5,033 bases of DNA from Oscillospiraceae bacterium. Lineage in GTDB: Bacteria > Bacillota_A > Clostridia > Oscillospirales > Oscillospiraceae. The notes below the pieces were generated by a model. That model had not been told where the DNA came from. It made no database searches and saw nothing but the letters and a program-made list of their open reading frames with translations. Below are positions 1 through 5,033 of this stretch, in pieces. Every line of letters starts with the position of its first letter. Position 1 is the first letter of the stretch. Location of the stretch: contig JAFQPT010000313.1 in assembly GCA_017411665.1 (NCBI GenBank), positions 1-5,033 on the forward strand, written 5' to 3'. The position numbers were made by a program, and so were the translations under genes.

Positions 1-147
1 GACGCAGTTGGCCACCGTGTCGTTCACGGCGGTGAGGAGTTCACCAAGTCCGTCCTGATCGACCGCAAGGTCCTGAAGGGCATCCGTGACTGCGTGCCTC
101 TGGCTCCCCTGCACAACCCTGCTAACCTGATTGGCATCGAGGCCTGC
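1..147 (+). pseudogene. ackA: Internal fragment of acetate kinase fused to metG
   Basis: The first ~49 codons encode a recognisable internal segment of acetate kinase, the enzyme that interconverts acetyl phosphate + ADP and acetate + ATP. The visible family hallmarks are GHRVVHGG (residues 4-11, containing the active-site Arg equivalent to R91 of the Methanosarcina enzyme), the SVLID stretch, and [15 protein letters not shown] (35-49, with the conserved active-site-region His). In acetate kinase the chain should next run through a variable turn into the FDTAFHQTMP block. Instead it passes in frame into the MetRS anticodon-binding domain. The exact joint cannot be fixed: the bases around 139-156 (encoding E-A-C-D-K) could fit either parent, so microhomology is possible. 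The N-terminal ~80 residues of acetate kinase would lie before the window; the C-terminal two thirds are missing. A product could not work as acetate kinase. Family recognition is confident; the biological reality of the fusion is not. Confidence 0.85.
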
Positions 148-828
148 GACAAGTACATCGACGAAACTGCACCCTGGCAGCTGGCAAAGGACGAAGCAAA
201 CAAGACTCGTCTGGCTACCGTTATGTACAATCTGCTGGAAGCAATCCGCATTTGCACCGTACTGCTGCAGCCCGTCATGCCCGAAAGCTGCGCAAAGATT
301 TTCGACCAGATCGGTGCAGCTGCAGACCAGCGTGACTGGGCTTCCGCTGCTGCATTCGGCGGTCTGTCCGCAGATGTGACCGTAGTGAAGGGCGACACCC
401 TGTTCCCCCGTATCGATCTGAAGAAGGAACTGGAAGAGCTGGAAAAGCTGAATGCTCCCAAGCTGCCCGAATCCAAGCCCGTACTGCCCGACGTATCCTT
501 CGATGACTTTATCAAGTGCGATATGCGCGTGTGCAAGGTACTGAGCGTGGAAACCATCAAAAAGAGCGAAAAGCTGCTGAAGTTCCAGCTGGATGACGGC
601 TCCGGAAAGCCTCGCCAGATCCTGTCCGGTATCCGCAAGTACTACCCCGACCACGAAGCACTGGTTGGCAAGACTGTGGTTGCGATTCTGAACCTGCCTC
701 CCAGAAAGATGATGGGTCAGGAATCCTGCGGCATGCTGCTGTCCGCTGTGAAGGAAATCGACGGCAAGGAAGAACTGCACCTGCTGATGCTGGATGACTC
801 CATCCCCACAGGGGCACAATTAGGATAA
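1..828 (+). CDS. metG: Methionyl-tRNA synthetase C-terminal part, chimeric 5' end
   Basis: The frame is open from base 1 to TAA at 826-828 (275 codons visible). From about residue 50 it is the C-terminal third of class I methionyl-tRNA synthetase, which charges tRNA-Met in the cytoplasm. The alpha-helical anticodon-binding domain begins with KYIDETAPW (51-59) and continues through the YNLLEAIRI and LLQPVMP stretches. A Lys/Glu/Pro-rich linker follows (~140-165). The C-terminal Trbp111/EMAP-like tRNA-binding OB fold (~167-275) carries the conserved [27 protein letters not shown] and SCGMLLSA blocks and ends in GAQLG, a normal MetRS terminus. The Rossmann catalytic domain (HIGH, KMSKS) is absent: bacterial MetRS of this type is about 650 residues. 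Upstream of residue 50 the sequence is not MetRS but acetate kinase. A GTG at 94 could be picked as a start by software, but it lies inside the acetate kinase segment and has no ribosome-binding site. MetRS identity is very secure; whether this reading frame exists in the organism is uncertain. Confidence 0.93.
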
Positions 829-845
829 TTCTACGTTAAGAGCGT

Positions 846-876
846 AAAAGCCCCGAAGCATCGCTTCGGGGCTTTT
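846..876 (+). terminator. Rho-independent terminator after metG
   Basis: A perfect 14-bp stem (846-859 with 863-876, core AGCCCCGAAGC/GCTTCGGGGCT) with an ATC loop runs into TTTTT at 873-877. It starts 18 bases after the metG stop, so it should end the metG transcript. The A-run on the left arm means it could also act on minus-strand transcription. Confidence 0.93.
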
Positions 877-889
877 TGAAAATAGCAAT

Positions 890-965
890 TGTAGGGACCG
901 GCCTTCCGGACGGTCCGCAATCAATCATGAAATCATACGGACCGCCGAGGACGTCGGTCCCTACA
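890..965. repeat. 76-bp palindromic intergenic element
   Basis: The ends are a perfect 11-bp inverted repeat: TGTAGGGACCG at 890-900 and its complement at 955-965. Further in, CGGTCCG (911-917) is complementary to CGGACCG (938-944). Each half is also a small hairpin by itself, GGACCG/CGGTCC at 895-900/911-916 and at 939-944/955-960. The whole element can therefore fold as one long imperfect stem or as two adjacent stem-loops. It encodes nothing convincing and lies between the metG terminator and the next gene's ribosome-binding site. Its form resembles the short dispersed palindromic or MITE-like repeats found between genes in many clostridial genomes. A single copy in this window cannot prove that it is dispersed. 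Confidence 0.75.
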
Positions 966-984
966 GTAAAGGGAGAAAACTCCT

Positions 985-1521
985 ATGAAACCTTCTTATT
1001 CCTTACAGATTCAAAACAGATTCACGGTCATGGGGCTTTCCGTGATGGCGGTGAGTGTGCTGATTCGCTGTATCTACTTTGCTGTGGAGGGCGGCAGTAC
1101 GGGACTGCTTATTGTCCATCTGCTGCTTCCCGTGCTGGCGGCACTGACCTTTTTCTTTGTGGTGCTGCGGGGACTGCCTGCGGAATACACCGCCTTGGGT
1201 GTGCTGTTCGGGGAGGTATTCTTCATCATCAAAGCGTTTACATTTGAAAGCAAGCTCCACACGACCCTGTGTGTGATTTTGTATCTGACTGTGCTGACCC
1301 TGTACACCGCCACTGTGTTTGGCCTCATTCCCACGAAAAAGCTGCTGTATCCCTTGTTCGGATTGCCGCTGCTGTACCACATTTTTGTGGAGGATATGCA
1401 AATCTATATCCTCGCAGACCATCCCGTACCTTATTTTCAGTGGCTGCCGGAAATTTCCGTGCTGCTGATTATGGCGGGGCTGCTGTGCATCAGTCTGGGT
1501 CTGGAGCGCAAAGAGCCGTAA
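985..1521 (+). CDS. Multi-pass membrane protein of unknown function
   Basis: This 178-residue protein was not recognised as a named family. About six hydrophobic segments are visible at roughly residues 17-34, 39-61, 68-85, 93-115, 119-135 and 156-173. They are joined by short loops, so it should be an integral cytoplasmic-membrane protein. The hydrophilic N-terminus is short and the C-terminus ends LGLERKEP; basic residues at both ends suggest both are cytoplasmic. No cleavable signal, catalytic motif, nucleotide-binding loop or transporter signature was seen. The ATG at 985 is preceded by AAAGGGAG (968-975) with 9 bases of spacing, which fixes the start. No convincing promoter was found between the metG terminator and this gene; the upstream space is filled by the palindromic element, so transcription may depend on readthrough or on an atypical promoter. 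The gene ends at a terminator shared with the convergent lipoprotein gene. The existence of the gene is well supported; its function is unknown. Confidence 0.85.
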   Translation: MKPSYSLQIQNRFTVMGLSVMAVSVLIRCIYFAVEGGSTGLLIVHLLLPVLAALTFFFVVLRGLPAEYTALGVLFGEVFFIIKAFTFESKLHTTLCVILYLTVLTLYTATVFGLIPTKKLLYPLFGLPLLYHIFVEDMQIYILADHPVPYFQWLPEISVLLIMAGLLCISLGLERKEP

Positions 1522-1552
1522 AAAGACCGCTTACGAATCGTAAGCGGTCTTT
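1522..1552. terminator. Bidirectional terminator between convergent genes
   Basis: A 14-bp perfect stem (1522-1535 with 1539-1552, core AAAGACCGCTTACG) with a 3-base AAT loop begins right after the stop codon of the membrane protein gene. It is followed by TTTGTTTT on the plus strand. On the minus strand it lies 3 bases beyond the lipoprotein stop codon at 1556 and runs into TTTT. It can end both convergent transcripts. Confidence 0.9.
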
Positions 1553-1555
1553 GTT

Positions 1556-2338
1556 TTATTTCAGTTGGTCGAGCTTGTCCATTGCTGCCTGCAATACAGT
1601 CTGCAAGATTGCCTCGAAGGTGTTCTGCTCGGGCAGCTCGGGGGGAGGTGCGGTCCGGGTCAGCACATAGGGATAGGAGAAGACACCGGTTTCGTCCAGA
1701 TTGACAGCTCCTGTGACAGTTACGTCAGCACCGTGCAGTGTATAGGTTTCGTAGTTGTCAGCAGGCGGGCCGGCCTGGAGGCTGTTGGAAATGTAGAGAC
1801 AGCCTTCCTTGGCGAGGAATCGGCCTTCGGAATAGAAGCTGCCGGTCAATGCTGTTGTGAAGCTCTCGTCAATGAGTGCGTCAACGGTCTCCTCAGCGCT
1901 CTTGCCCAGTGCGGTGCTGAATATTTCATCCCAGCTCATGCCCACAGCGGCTTCCAGGTCCTCATAGGTTTCAATGGTGAGTCCGTAGGGAGTAAGCTGC
2001 TCCTTGCATGCTGCGAAGATGTTGTCTGTCAGCAGCGGCAGTACGGCAGTTTTCAAATTTTCCACGGCGGTGACGATGGAGTCCTGCTCCACGGTCATAT
2101 TGTAGGTGCCGTCTGCGTTGAATACAAAGGTGATGGTCAATTTGAATTCGCTGAGGTAGTTTTTCAGAGAATACACGGTGTCTGCGGTGCCCAGACCTGT
2201 GTCAAAGGTATCTACCACCGACTGATACAAATCCACTTCTGTTTGATAGGTGCCGAGAATCTCGGGAGGAGGCGCGGTGCAGCCAACCAGAGACAATGCC
2301 AGTACAGCGGCCAGCAGCAGTGCAATCAGTTTCTTCAT
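1556..2338 (-). CDS. Lipoprotein, longer member of a tandem paralogous pair
   Basis: This 260-residue predicted lipoprotein has an N-terminal type II signal peptide: basic MKK, a hydrophobic Leu/Ala core and the lipobox LVGC with Cys20. Lgt should lipidate it, leaving it anchored on the outer face of the membrane. The mature part begins with a short Pro linker (TAPPPE) and then a domain with ILGTYQTEVDL (27-37), FNADGTY (73-79), YGLTIETYEDLE (118-129), WDEIFSTALG (136-145), YETYTLHG (196-203), VTVTGAVN (206-213) and YPYVLT (222-227). The same blocks occur in order in the neighbouring lipoprotein, so the two are paralogs. Residues ~229-260 are an addition absent from the neighbour: a second TAPPPE and a probable amphipathic helix. 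I cannot give a function; beta-strand-rich, lipocalin-like or substrate-binding roles are guesses. The start is set by AGGAAAGGA ending 8 bases before ATG. The gene has its own promoter and terminator. Confidence 0.9.
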   Translation of the reverse strand: MKKLIALLLAAVLALSLVGCTAPPPEILGTYQTEVDLYQSVVDTFDTGLGTADTVYSLKNYLSEFKLTITFVFNADGTYNMTVEQDSIVTAVENLKTAVLPLLTDNIFAACKEQLTPYGLTIETYEDLEAAVGMSWDEIFSTALGKSAEETVDALIDESFTTALTGSFYSEGRFLAKEGCLYISNSLQAGPPADNYETYTLHGADVTVTGAVNLDETGVFSYPYVLTRTAPPPELPEQNTFEAILQTVLQAAMDKLDQLK

Positions 2339-2374
2339 CTTCGTATCCTTTCCTGTGGAGTCGCTTCACCTTGT

Positions 2375-2396
2375 GAGGTAACTATCATTCTACCTC
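2375..2396. promoter_or_regulatory. Dyad overlapping the -10 of the longer lipoprotein gene
   Basis: On either strand this reads GAGGTA-N10-TACCTC, a perfect 6-bp inverted repeat. It spans the -10 hexamer at 2387-2392 and the expected transcription start. The position suits a repressor operator, or the 5' end of the mRNA could contribute to a weak hairpin. No known regulator consensus is claimed. Confidence 0.4.
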
Positions 2397-2415
2397 TTAT
2401 GCCGAAGAATGTCAA
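2387..2415 (-). promoter_or_regulatory. Sigma-A-type promoter of the longer lipoprotein gene
   Basis: On the minus strand a perfect -35 TTGACA (2415-2410) and a -10 TAGAAT (2392-2387, one mismatch to TATAAT) are separated by exactly 17 bases. Transcription should start near 2380, giving a leader of about 42 bases before the ATG at 2338. The -35 directly follows the T-rich end of the preceding lipoprotein gene's terminator, so one transcript ends where the next promoter begins. Confidence 0.85.
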
Positions 2416-2418
2416 AAC

Positions 2419-2445
2419 AAAAGACCGCTCAATGAGCGGTCTTTT
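2419..2445 (-). terminator. Terminator after the shorter lipoprotein gene
   Basis: A perfect 12-bp stem (2419-2430 with 2434-2445) with a 3-base loop lies 18 bases beyond the TGA of the lipoprotein gene. On the minus strand it runs into CTTTTGTTTT. Its core AAAGACCGCT/AGCGGTCTTT is the same as in the terminator at 1522-1552, which follows the paralogous gene. Confidence 0.9.
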
Positions 2446-2463
2446 TGAAATTTTGCTGAAAAA

Positions 2464-3153
2464 TCAGGAAACCTTGGTCATAGTGTAGGGGTAGGGCAGC
2501 AGTTCTTCTTCCTCTACATTTACACCGCCGGTGATGGTAACGGTGTCGCCGTCAATTTCGTAGGTTTCGTAAACGTTTTCGTCGATGTTGTATTCCAGAC
2601 CGTCGGACAGGAACAGCTTGCCGTCTTCAGCCTTGTAGTTGCCTTCCAGCAGCAGGGTGTCTTCAAACATGTCAGCGGACAGCTCATTAATCATTTCATC
2701 CACAAACTCGTTGAGGTCTACGCCCAGAACAGAGCTGTAGATATCGTCCCAGGCAATGTTCAGAATGCCTTCTACGTCTTCACGGGTGTTGATGGTGTAG
2801 CCGTAGCCGACAAATTCCTGCTTGAAGGTGTACAGCAGGAAGTCATCCATTACGGGGATGATTGCGTTCTTCATGTTTCCCATTGCTCTTTCCAGAGAAG
2901 CACTGTCGATGGTCTGGGAGTAGGTGCCGTCTTCGTTGAACTGGCTGATCATAACGATTTTAAAATCGGTGAGATGGTTGCTCAGAGAAATTCCGGTACC
3001 GGTAATTTCTGCACCCTTATCAAATTCGTCACAAACCAGATCGGTCAGATCGATTTCGGCTTCGTAGGTGCCCAGAATGTCGGGGCTGCTGCCGCAGGCT
3101 GCCAGCGCGAATACCATGACCAGAGCCATCAGCAGAGAAATCATTTTTTTCAT
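2464..3153 (-). CDS. Lipoprotein, shorter member of a tandem paralogous pair
   Basis: This 229-residue predicted lipoprotein has a signal peptide starting MKKMISLLMALV and the lipobox LAAC with Cys20, the same position as in its neighbour. The mature chain has a short GSSP linker, then ILGTYEAEIDL (26-36), FNEDGTY (72-78), YGYTINTREDVE (117-128), WDDIYSSVLG (135-144), a Glu/Asp-rich stretch (VDEMINELSADMFED), EGNYKAEDGKLFLS (170-183), VYETYEIDGDTVTITGGVN (194-212) and YPYTMT (221-226). It ends where the neighbour's C-terminal extension begins. The mature protein is strongly acidic. The frame is open to an ATG at 3285, but that start would lie upstream of the promoter and inside a terminator. 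The ATG at 3153 has a signal peptide right after it and GAAAGGAA 9 bases before it, so it is preferred. It should be an exported lipid-anchored protein and a substrate of the Lgt encoded upstream. The biochemical role is unknown. Confidence 0.91.
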   Translation of the reverse strand: MKKMISLLMALVMVFALAACGSSPDILGTYEAEIDLTDLVCDEFDKGAEITGTGISLSNHLTDFKIVMISQFNEDGTYSQTIDSASLERAMGNMKNAIIPVMDDFLLYTFKQEFVGYGYTINTREDVEGILNIAWDDIYSSVLGVDLNEFVDEMINELSADMFEDTLLLEGNYKAEDGKLFLSDGLEYNIDENVYETYEIDGDTVTITGGVNVEEEELLPYPYTMTKVS

Positions 3154-3162
3154 TTTGTTCAG

Positions 3163-3170
3163 TTCCTTTC
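3163..3170 (-). promoter_or_regulatory. Ribosome-binding site that fixes the lipoprotein start
   Basis: The minus strand reads GAAAGGAA, 9 bases before the ATG at 3153. This site, with the signal peptide that follows, rules out the longer in-frame start at 3285. Confidence 0.85.
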
Positions 3171-3172
3171 GC

Positions 3173-3191
3173 ACAAATTCACGGAATTTGT
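3173..3191 (-). promoter_or_regulatory. Leader hairpin or operator upstream of the shorter lipoprotein gene
   Basis: This is a perfect 8-bp inverted repeat, ACAAATTC and GAATTTGT with a 3-base centre. It lies between the promoter -10 (3205-3210) and the ribosome-binding site (3163-3170), just 2 bases before the latter. It is AT-rich and not followed by a T-run, so it is not a terminator. It could be a regulator's operator in the transcribed leader or an mRNA stem that affects translation or stability. Which of these is not decidable here. Confidence 0.5.
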
Positions 3192-3204
3192 CAGATTTGA
3201 GTAC

Positions 3205-3233
3205 ATTATACGCCTGTACATGGAAACTGTCAA
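3205..3233 (-). promoter_or_regulatory. Perfect-consensus sigma-A-type promoter of the shorter lipoprotein gene
   Basis: On the minus strand TTGACA (3233-3228) and TATAAT (3210-3205) are both exact consensus with an exact 17-base spacer. Transcription should start around 3198, giving a leader of ~45 bases. A promoter this close to consensus predicts strong transcription unless repressed. It lies downstream of the terminator of the acidic protein gene, so the lipoprotein gene should be an independent unit. Confidence 0.92.
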
Positions 3234-3272
3234 AGAAAGTTTGCGTTTTATCTGTTAAATTGAGATTGGTTG

Positions 3273-3311
3273 AAAAAACAGGCACAGCGACAAACGCTGT
3301 GCCTGTTTTTT
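3273..3311 (-). terminator. Strong terminator after the acidic coiled-coil gene
   Basis: A perfect 17-bp stem (3273-3289 with 3295-3311; GC core CAGGCACAGCG) has a 5-base loop and a run of six T on the minus strand. It lies 21 bases after the stop codon at 3333. The matching T-run on the plus strand makes it bidirectional in principle, but there is no plus-strand gene to end. Confidence 0.93.
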
Positions 3312-3332
3312 TGATTCTGTATGGACTGTGTT

Positions 3333-3998
3333 TTATTCCTCTGCGGCGGGTTCTTCCAGCTCAACCACTTCCACAACGATTTCCTCGTCCTGAGTAGGTG
3401 CTGCGAAGTCTTCGTCATCCAGATATTCTTCCACGGTGACTTCGATTTCATCTTCTTCCACAGCGGGTGCTTCATCGCAGAGCTCCAGCTTTTCCAGAGC
3501 AGCTTCGATGGCATCTTCCAGACCGTCCAGTGCGTCTTCCACGGCGTCGGCCATGCGTTCCAGGAAGTCCTCTTCTTCTGCGGGTTCTTCGCCTTCCGCT
3601 TCTTCGCCTTCGGCCATGTTTACGACCAATTCGTCTTCGTCCAGAACAACGTCTGCGGAGGCCTTCAGTGCTTCGATTTCGTTGTTGATGTCCTCGATGT
3701 TGACCAGAGTGTTTTCCACTTCTGCGCACAGGTCAGCCAGAACGCCTTCGGCATCTGCCTTGTGCAGCTCGTAGTACAGTTTGCCCAGTTCCTTGTATGC
3801 GTCTTCCAGAGCGGTTTCTTCCTTCTTTTTTTCCACATACAGCTTTGCAATCTGCTGACCGACCTTTGCGGTGTCGGCAGCTGCGTCAGCCAGATCCAGA
3901 ACCTTATCGGCGACAGTGGAAATGGTGTCGGTCAGTGCGCCGCGGAGCGTGTCCAGGTCAAGGTTAATTTTCTTGAAGTCAAAGTTCTTTCTTGCCAT
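3333..3998 (-). CDS. Highly acidic coiled-coil protein of unknown function
   Basis: This 221-residue protein was not recognised as a named family. Residues 1-25 are mixed and start MARKNFDFKKINLDL. Residues ~25-113 look like long helices with heptad-like spacing, including the Lys/Glu-rich segment KLYVEKKKEETALEDAYKELGKLYYEL (52-78), which probably forms a coiled coil. From about residue 115 to the end nearly half the residues (about 47 of 107) are Asp or Glu and only two are basic. This tail holds one likely amphipathic helix (FLERMADAVEDALDGLEDAIEAALEKL, 145-171) between low-complexity Glu/Ala/Pro stretches. There is no signal peptide or membrane segment, so a cytoplasmic protein is inferred. 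The ATG at 3998 is preceded 8 bases away by GGAGGG (4012-4007), a strong ribosome-binding site. The gene lies 103 bases downstream of lgt and ends at a strong terminator. Scaffold, envelope-associated and nucleic-acid-mimic roles are all unproven. Confidence 0.88.
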   Translation of the reverse strand: MARKNFDFKKINLDLDTLRGALTDTISTVADKVLDLADAAADTAKVGQQIAKLYVEKKKEETALEDAYKELGKLYYELHKADAEGVLADLCAEVENTLVNIEDINNEIEALKASADVVLDEDELVVNMAEGEEAEGEEPAEEEDFLERMADAVEDALDGLEDAIEAALEKLELCDEAPAVEEDEIEVTVEEYLDDEDFAAPTQDEEIVVEVVELEEPAAEE

Positions 3999-4101
3999 AA
4001 TAATATCCCTCCATATTTTTAGTTCGTTACGTACATTGGTGGTTGTTGGCGATTTTCGCTCGGTAACGGTGGTGTGTCAAAATATCTGCGATGGTCACAG
4101 C

Positions 4102-4947
4102 TTATTCGGCCGATTGTTCTTCGGCTGCGATGCGGTCAACATGCAGTGTATGAGGCTTCTTTCTCATAGCAATCAGCACGCCCAGTGCAATCGCTGCGGA
4201 CACCGCTGCCAGCAGCTGGCTGACGCGGATGCCTGTGCTGCCGATGTACAGACTGTCGGCACGCAGACCTTCAATCATGGCACGGCCGATGCCGTACCAG
4301 ATGACGTACAGGGTGAATACCTCGCCATCGTATTTGCGTTTGCCCTTGCTGACGTACAGATGCAGCAGGATGATGCCCAGTAGATTCCACAGTCCTTCAT
4401 ACAGGAAGGTGGGGTGTACATAGATGGTGCCCTTTGCGGTGGTGAGGCCCATGCGGGTGAACAGCTCCGTTTCCGCACCGAAGGCTTCGCGGTTGAAGAA
4501 GTTGCCCCAACGGCCGCAAATCTGACCGATCATCAGACCGAATACACCGCAGTCCAGCACTGCTCCTGCGGGCAGCTTCTTGATGCGGCAGACAATCAGC
4601 AGAGTAATGACCGCTGCGATGATGCCGCCGTAAATGGCCAGACCGCCTTCCCAGATGGCAAACAGGTCGCCGATGGGTCTGCCGCGGTACAGGTCAAAAT
4701 TGAAAATCACGTAATAGGCTCTGGCACCGACGATCGCCATGGGCAGGGCCCACAAAATGACGTCATAAATGTGGTCGTCCTTCAGACCAAACTTGGGTGC
4801 CCGTCTGGTGCAGTAGGCCATGCCAAGGATAAAGCCCAGTGCTGCCATGATGCCGTACAGATAAATGGTTCTTCCGAACAGGTCGAAGCCTGCGGGAGGA
4901 TTCAGCTCCAGTCCCAGCGCGGGGAATGTGATAATTGCTTCTCTCAT
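4102..4947 (-). CDS. lgt: Prolipoprotein diacylglyceryl transferase
   Basis: Lgt moves the diacylglyceryl group from phosphatidylglycerol to the lipobox cysteine of prolipoproteins, the first step of bacterial lipoprotein maturation in the cytoplasmic membrane. The 281-residue protein is a normal family length and has about seven hydrophobic segments. Family motifs appear in order: IYLYGIMAALGF (28-39), PMAIVGARAYYVIFN (69-83), WEGGLAIYGG (99-108), the Lgt signature GRWGNFFNREAFG (145-157; Arg146 matches E. coli Arg143), HPTFLYEGLWN (178-188) and GRAMIEGLRADSLYIG (221-236; Arg229 probably matches E. coli Arg239). No key residue appears to be lost. The ATG at 4947 is chosen because the following sequence matches usual Lgt N-termini. 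The frame is open further upstream, but that part overlaps the preceding gene and reads poorly. The start lies 5 bases after the preceding stop and has no clear Shine-Dalgarno, suggesting translational coupling. Two lipoprotein genes lie downstream. Confidence 0.97.
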   Translation of the reverse strand: MREAIITFPALGLELNPPAGFDLFGRTIYLYGIMAALGFILGMAYCTRRAPKFGLKDDHIYDVILWALPMAIVGARAYYVIFNFDLYRGRPIGDLFAIWEGGLAIYGGIIAAVITLLIVCRIKKLPAGAVLDCGVFGLMIGQICGRWGNFFNREAFGAETELFTRMGLTTAKGTIYVHPTFLYEGLWNLLGIILLHLYVSKGKRKYDGEVFTLYVIWYGIGRAMIEGLRADSLYIGSTGIRVSQLLAAVSAAIALGVLIAMRKKPHTLHVDRIAAEEQSAE

Positions 4948-4952
4948 AGACG

Positions 4953-5033
4953 TTACACTGCGGGCTTGATGACAGACATCGCCAGCTTCTCCTCTGTGAG
5001 ATTTTCCGCAATGAAGCGGGAGCATTCCTCTGC
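4953..5033 (-). CDS. C-terminal end of an unidentified gene upstream of lgt
   Basis: The last 26 codons of a minus-strand reading frame enter from the window edge and stop at TAA (4955-4953). They read AEECSRFIAENLTEEKLA followed by MSVIKPAV, a helix-like amphipathic composition typical of a soluble protein end. The lgt start is only 5 bases further on, so the two are probably co-transcribed and translationally coupled. The alternative frame, an upstream extension of lgt, gives a less protein-like sequence. The fragment is too short to name; in many Firmicutes hprK lies upstream of lgt, but this C-terminus does not look like HprK to me. Confidence 0.6.
   Translation of the reverse strand, partial: AEECSRFIAENLTEEKLAMSVIKPAV

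What the first reader, a model, noticed from the sequence alone, without database searches (positions are those of the whole stretch)
1..180. In-frame acetate kinase-methionyl-tRNA synthetase chimera
One uninterrupted frame passes from an acetate kinase core segment ([23 protein letters not shown]) straight into the MetRS anticodon-binding domain ([15 protein letters not shown]). No natural fusion of these enzymes is known to me, and the joint cuts through the middle of both folds, so neither activity would survive. MetRS is essential and acetate kinase is central to fermentation, so intact copies would be needed elsewhere. The likeliest explanation is a misjoin or chimeric contig at a short shared stretch around 139-156. 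A real deletion or recombination between ackA and metG is the alternative. Any annotation carrying this frame as metG or ackA would be misleading.
Basis: partly seen in the sequence, partly recalled or inferred. Interest (0 to 1): 0.7.

Follow-up and report, generated by a model that had tools for sequence, protein, structure and literature searches.

The report
Artificial join of two bacteria's genes
The first 149 bases of this sequence are a scrap of an acetate kinase gene from one bacterium stuck onto the tail of a methionyl-tRNA synthetase gene from a different bacterium, so the apparent fusion protein is almost certainly a sequencing or assembly artefact and not a new gene.

Summary
In detail: one open frame (1-828, 275 aa) passes from acetate kinase (PF00871) into the C-terminal part of MetRS (PF19303, PF01588). 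The joint is sharp. From base 149 the window matches metG of another lineage (nearest L001, genome G001; 86% over 670 bases). The parents share one base at the joint and no word above 8 near it (12 in the gene stretches compared), so a misjoin at a shared stretch 139-156 is not supported. A 22-base word across the joint does occur in one of 394 genomes, in an unrelated purine-synthesis gene. G604's own metG is only 62% identical to the window's (G001 88%), its lgt 54% (G001 73%): two species. Complete normal ackA and metG exist in the relatives. The degenerate joint pattern was in 0 of 400 family genomes, and no ackA-MetRS composite is among the 120 listed hits of either protein search. The scrap lies at the window's edge and is about one short read long. 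Best reading: chimeric read, library molecule or assembly error. No reads or source genome were available. Low interest.

The parts
1..149 (+). internal fragment of an acetate kinase gene (residues 85-133 of 404), foreign to the rest of the window
149..150 (.). joint; base 149 (A) is the only base there that both parents share with the window
   Evidence: per-base comparison with both parents
150..828 (+). 3' end of metG (C-terminal part of methionyl-tRNA synthetase with tRNA-binding domain, stop codon included)
   Evidence: NF008900 on residues 46-274; 86% DNA identity to L001 metG over 149-818; 94% aa identity to P0001, which has ordinary MetRS residues upstream of the joint
846..876 (.). 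intrinsic-terminator-like hairpin after metG
   Evidence: 14-nt arms, 100% complementary, 3 nt between; T run seen directly

Best explanation
The frame is an interspecies sequence chimera made outside the cell. A 149-base piece of ackA from one bacterium (G604 lineage) was joined, practically without homology, to sequence of another one (G001-like lineage) inside metG. The likeliest route is a single chimeric sequencing read or library molecule (blunt ligation or template switching) that extended the end of a metagenomic contig. Shown: two parents, a sharp joint with one shared base, differing species affinities of the two sides, no second ackA-metG joint where searched. Inferred: that it arose in library preparation or assembly and not in a cell, that the window's left edge is a contig end, and which artefact route it was.
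For: ackA side 147/149 identical to G604 up to base 149, then 22/71. metG side 86% to L001 from base 149, only 44/148 before it. Among ten genomes searched, G001's metG is 88% and G604's 62% identical to the window's MetRS part. lgt at the far end of the window: G001 73%, G604 54% (9 of 10 genomes matched; G588 55%, so this shows G001 as nearest and does not rank the others). The coiled-coil-like gene and lgt match G001 locus L148 in the same order and strand, and both lipoprotein-like genes match one stretch beside them (only loci fetched by then were compared). The ackA of genomes with the next-best metG scores far below G604's against P0126: G588 4.2e-164, G552 1.0e-153, G602 3.8e-153, against 4.9e-274. 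The joint as a degenerate 27-base pattern is in 0 of 400 family genomes and as an exact 41-base word in no viral contig. None of the 120 listed hits carries PF00871; none of the 120 listed carries a MetRS domain. The foreign piece is at the window's edge and 149 bases long. Comparable one-off composites exist: P0010, P0016, P0021, P0073.
Against: No reads, coverage or source genome, so depth across the joint is untested. The true metG parent is not in hand; L001 is an 86% proxy. The frame and strand agree on both sides (about 1 in 6 by chance). About 8000 candidates were scored and 120 listed in each protein search, so an unlisted composite is possible. G001 is a small draft (1.3 Mb) without a detectable ackA, so a transferred G604-like ackA in the window's species is not excluded. 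The neighbourhood metG - membrane gene - lipoproteins - lgt is not reproduced in G001: metG and lgt lie on different contigs (C17, C30), metG is followed by other genes, and the membrane gene has no match there, so that 149-5033 is one unbroken piece is itself not proven. A 22-base exact word spanning the joint (135-156) occurs in 1 of 394 genomes, G136, in an AICAR formyltransferase gene that shares 15 bases with ackA and 8 with metG; probably chance (E 1.4e-4 in one of 394 genomes), but it could in principle have bridged the two.
Confidence: 0.94

Rival explanations
1. An assembler misjoin at a word shared by ackA and metG, directly or by way of a third gene that shares words with both.
For: A formyltransferase gene in G136 holds a 22-base word identical to window 135-156; it shares 15 bases with G604 ackA and 8 with L001 metG.
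Against: Directly the parents share one base at the joint, no word above 8 bases in the joint region and none above 12 in the gene stretches compared. The bridge words of 15 and 8 bases are shorter than short-read graph assemblers use (general knowledge), and it is not known that such a gene was in the sample. L001 is only an 86% proxy of the metG parent.
Confidence: 0.04
2. A real recombination in a cell: a G604-like ackA piece joined to metG of another species, leaving a dead pseudogene beside an intact metG elsewhere.
For: The frame is open and neither side is damaged; transfer of ackA into the window's species is not excluded because G001 is incomplete.
Against: Different species affinities of the two sides; degenerate joint pattern in 0 of 400 genomes; MetRS is essential (general knowledge) and a second copy would be needed, while G001 shows one match; one base of homology.
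Confidence: 0.02
3. A functional natural fusion protein of acetate kinase and MetRS.
For: One open frame of 275 aa, whose upstream part is not visible.
Against: Acetate kinase is left after residue 133 of 404 and the MetRS catalytic domain is absent from the visible frame; no such layout among the 120 listed hits or the 120; no paper in the held library holds the terms acetate kinase, methionyl-tRNA synthetase and gene fusion together.
Confidence: 0.002

Closest known systems
Chimeric reads and chimeric contigs of metagenome assembly
   Same: Two unrelated genes of different species joined sharply at an edge, not found again where searched, practically no homology at the joint.
   Different: No read data here, so the step at which it formed is not known.
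Multiple displacement amplification chimeras (Lasken and Stockwell 2007, PMC1855051; abstract and section list seen)
   Same: Joints between separate sequences made during DNA amplification.
   Different: By that abstract more than 85% are inverted sequences with intervening deletions, intramolecular events are favoured, and over 70% of junctions have 2-21 complementary bases; here the join is between species with one shared base.
Methionyl-tRNA synthetase (metG), C-terminal part
   Same: Bases 150-828 are an ordinary metG end.
   Different: The catalytic domain is missing because the sequence leaves the gene at base 149.

Membership tests
Acetate kinase (PF00871 / TIGR00016) | full-length acetokinase domain | tested here: not met
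   profile positions 84-138 of 392, 67.4 bits; TIGR00016 64.5 bits against a cut-off of 293.4; the upstream part lies outside the window
Methionyl-tRNA synthetase (NF008900) | full-length enzyme above the curated score | tested here: not met
   219.4 bits against 598; profile 418-647 of 648 only
Methionyl-tRNA synthetase (NF008900) | C-terminal tRNA-binding domain | tested here: met
   PF01588 90.9 bits, cut-off 27
Interspecies sequence chimera | each side closer to a different genome, with a sharp switch | tested here: met
   147/149 to G604 up to base 149, 86% to L001 from base 149; G604 metG 62%, G001 metG 88%
Interspecies sequence chimera | ackA-metG joint not found in other sequences | tested here: met
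   0 of 400 family genomes by degenerate pattern; none in viral contigs; none in the 120 listed hits; a 22-base word across the joint recurs once, in an unrelated gene
Interspecies sequence chimera | low or one-sided read support at the joint | not testable with these tools
   no reads; no genome held for the window
k-mer misjoin | long shared word of the two parents at the joint | tested here: not met
   one base at the joint; longest word 8 in the joint region, 12 across the gene stretches; metG parent is a proxy; a third gene shares 15 and 8 bases

The most novel reading that the evidence does not exclude
A species of the G001-like lineage that recently took up a G604-like ackA truly carries in its DNA an illegitimate joint between that ackA and metG, with an intact metG kept elsewhere.
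Probability: 0.02. Interest if true: 0.3.

Novelty: not a real feature. Interest (0 to 1): 0.04.

Why it matters
It matters only as a caution: an annotation pipeline would call this frame a MetRS or an acetate kinase, and fusion-protein catalogues built from metagenomes would pick it up. Without bases 1-149 what is left looks like an ordinary contig. Comparable one-off composites appear in the same hit list: 4 of the 120 listed hits carry an unrelated Pfam domain (confirmed), each a single-member cluster.

Tried and rejected
Own-genome search: none held. The order-wide DNA search for the ackA piece gave at best 80% identity over its length (100 of 394 genomes matched) and the family of G309 at best 81% (44 of 87), which first pointed to the wrong family; the full-length ackA search in the family of G001 found the match in G604 (299 of 400 genomes at E 1e-150). 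Hits that seemed to cover residues 8-45 as well (97% coverage for P0002 and P0003; 22-275 for L001) were looked at: for P0002 and P0003 the left part is a gapped alignment of MetRS, not acetate kinase; L001 codes an ordinary 649-aa MetRS. Other loci with such left extensions (L024, L031, L055, L060, L068, L072) were not examined one by one. The plasmid comparison gave 12 records with ackA-like or tRNA-synthetase-like stretches or stretches without annotation, none covering 80% of the query. A literature search for such a fusion found no paper holding all three terms. Searches for chimeric-read literature gave listings only; passages of PMC6777429 and the abstract and section list of PMC1855051 were seen. 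The inverted repeat at 890-965 was considered as a second misjoin point; a 17-base pattern of it was in 0 of the 156 loci then held. That does not exclude a second joint between metG and the genes to its right. The 22-base word across the joint in G136 was overlooked at first, then fetched and traced to a formyltransferase gene.

Full report
What is there. The frame 1-828 is open for 275 residues and enters from the left edge of the window. Pfam and NCBIfam place acetate kinase on about residues 1-52 and the C-terminal part of methionyl-tRNA synthetase on residues 46-274.

The acetate kinase side. A search with residues 1-50 found complete acetate kinases of 404 aa. Of the 120 listed rows, 26 (P0121, a shorter protein, and P0122 to P0146) agree with the window in all 49 residues up to Cys49 and continue with EDVMPGKPMVAVFDTAFHQ or EDVLPGKPMVAVFDTAFHQ where the window has [10 protein letters not shown]. 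At DNA level window 1-149 matches that gene in 147 of 149 bases; the differences, at bases 9 and 12, are silent. From base 150 the match falls to 22 of 71.

The MetRS side. From base 149 the window matches metG of L001 (a named Oscillospiraceae MAG; genome G001) at 86% over 670 bases, while left of base 149 the same register gives 44 of 148. A closer but partial protein, P0001, is 94% identical and reads [15 protein letters not shown] where the window reads [15 protein letters not shown]. L001 codes a complete MetRS of 649 aa.

The joint. Base 149 (A) is the only base at the joint at which both parents agree with the window. The longest word shared by the parents is 8 bases in the joint region, away from the joint, and 12 bases over the gene stretches compared. 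Such a joint is expected from blunt ligation or illegitimate priming and not from a graph assembler that needs a long shared word. The metG parent in hand is an 86% relative, so this carries that limit.

A result that cuts the other way. In the order-wide search one genome of 394, G136, holds an exact 22-base copy of window 135-156, across the joint, in addition to its ordinary ackA match. It lies near the end of a 400-codon frame that NCBIfam names phosphoribosylaminoimidazolecarboxamide formyltransferase (NF005492, 665.2 bits, cut-off 415). That gene shares 15 bases with G604 ackA and 8 with L001 metG. So the joint word exists naturally in another gene, and a bridge through such a gene is conceivable; with words of 15 and 8 bases it is not a good one, and the per-genome E-value of 1.4e-4 over 394 genomes makes chance the simpler account. 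It is not an ackA-metG joint.

Two species, not one. Among ten genomes searched together, G001's metG is 88% and G604's 62% identical to the window's part. lgt, at the other end of the window, gives G001 73% and G604 54%, with G588 at 55%. The window's coiled-coil-like gene and lgt match G001 locus L148 in the same order, and both lipoprotein-like genes match one stretch beside them. So 149-5033 fits a G001-like lineage best and 1-149 fits G604. Limits: G001 is a small draft with no match to the 50-residue acetate kinase query and none to P0126 at E 1e-150, so a transferred ackA is not excluded. In G001 metG and lgt lie on different contigs, metG is followed by other genes, and the window's membrane gene has no match, so the continuity of the window right of metG is not proven either. 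G001's three genus mates have metG only 62% identical to the window's, an oddity of that grouping.

No recurrence where searched. The joint as a degenerate pattern is in 0 of 400 genomes drawn from the family of G001, and exactly in no viral contig. None of the 120 listed hits has an acetate kinase domain; none of the 120 listed has a MetRS domain. About 8000 candidates were scored in each and only the best 120 listed; a second copy of the whole frame should have headed the list, where the best hit covers 84% of the query.

Interpretation. A sharp switch between two species, one base of homology, a foreign piece at the window's edge of about one short read, and no recurrence of the ackA-metG joint together point to a chimeric read or library molecule that extended a contig end. 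That the window's edge is a contig end is inferred. MDA chimeras, by the abstract of PMC1855051, are mostly inverted, often intramolecular and mostly primed at 2-21 complementary bases, which fits less well. Background examples: of the 120 listed hits, four carry a domain foreign to MetRS, confirmed: P0010 (HMGL-like), P0016 (Epimerase_2), P0021 (Aldo_ket_red), P0073 (Maf), each a single-member cluster. Of the 120 listed one, P0227, leaves acetate kinase at nearly the same place for a 2-hydroxyglutaryl-CoA dehydratase domain.

Verdict. Ordinary artefact; novelty none. Bases 1-149 should be set aside and the frame annotated as a partial metG.

Noticed in passing
L157 1524-1545 (G136:C58:7723-7744): Exact 22-base copy of window 135-156, across the joint, inside an AICAR formyltransferase gene, in the same reading frame (IEACDKY); probably chance, possibly a bridge.
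   Followed up: yes
window 890-965: Imperfect inverted repeat (28-nt arms, 79% complementary, 20 nt between) after the metG terminator, like a small mobile or REP-type element; a 17-base pattern of it is in 0 of the 156 loci then held.
   Followed up: partly
window 1556-2338 and 2464-3162 (minus strand): Two neighbouring lipoprotein-like genes that match the same stretch of L148 at 45% and 49%, so probably a tandem duplicate pair; no Pfam match.
   Followed up: partly
window 985-1521: Membrane-protein-like gene without Pfam or NCBIfam match; relatives in 39 of 380 genomes of the family of G001, at best 50% identical, none in G001.
   Followed up: partly
window 3333-3998 (minus strand): Acidic, coiled-coil-like protein of 221 aa beside lgt, without a family match; 65% identical to a neighbour of lgt in L148.
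   Followed up: partly
P0010, P0016, P0021, P0073, P0227: Four other MetRS C-terminal proteins and one acetate kinase joined to unrelated domains, each a single-member cluster; P0227 leaves acetate kinase near the window's own joint. Likely further metagenomic chimeras.
   Followed up: partly
P0007: A 420-aa protein with the MetRS anticodon region in two tandem, nearly identical copies; assembly duplication or real, not tested.
   Followed up: no
P0121 to P0146 and P0174: 27 acetate kinases are listed with '-' as source, which the tool uses for proteins the window itself encodes, though the window holds only 49 of their residues; reason not known.
   Followed up: no
G001 against G402-G404: Genomes grouped in one genus with G001 have metG only 62% identical to the window's while other genomes of the family reach 73-75%, so G001's placement or binning may be wrong.
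   Followed up: no
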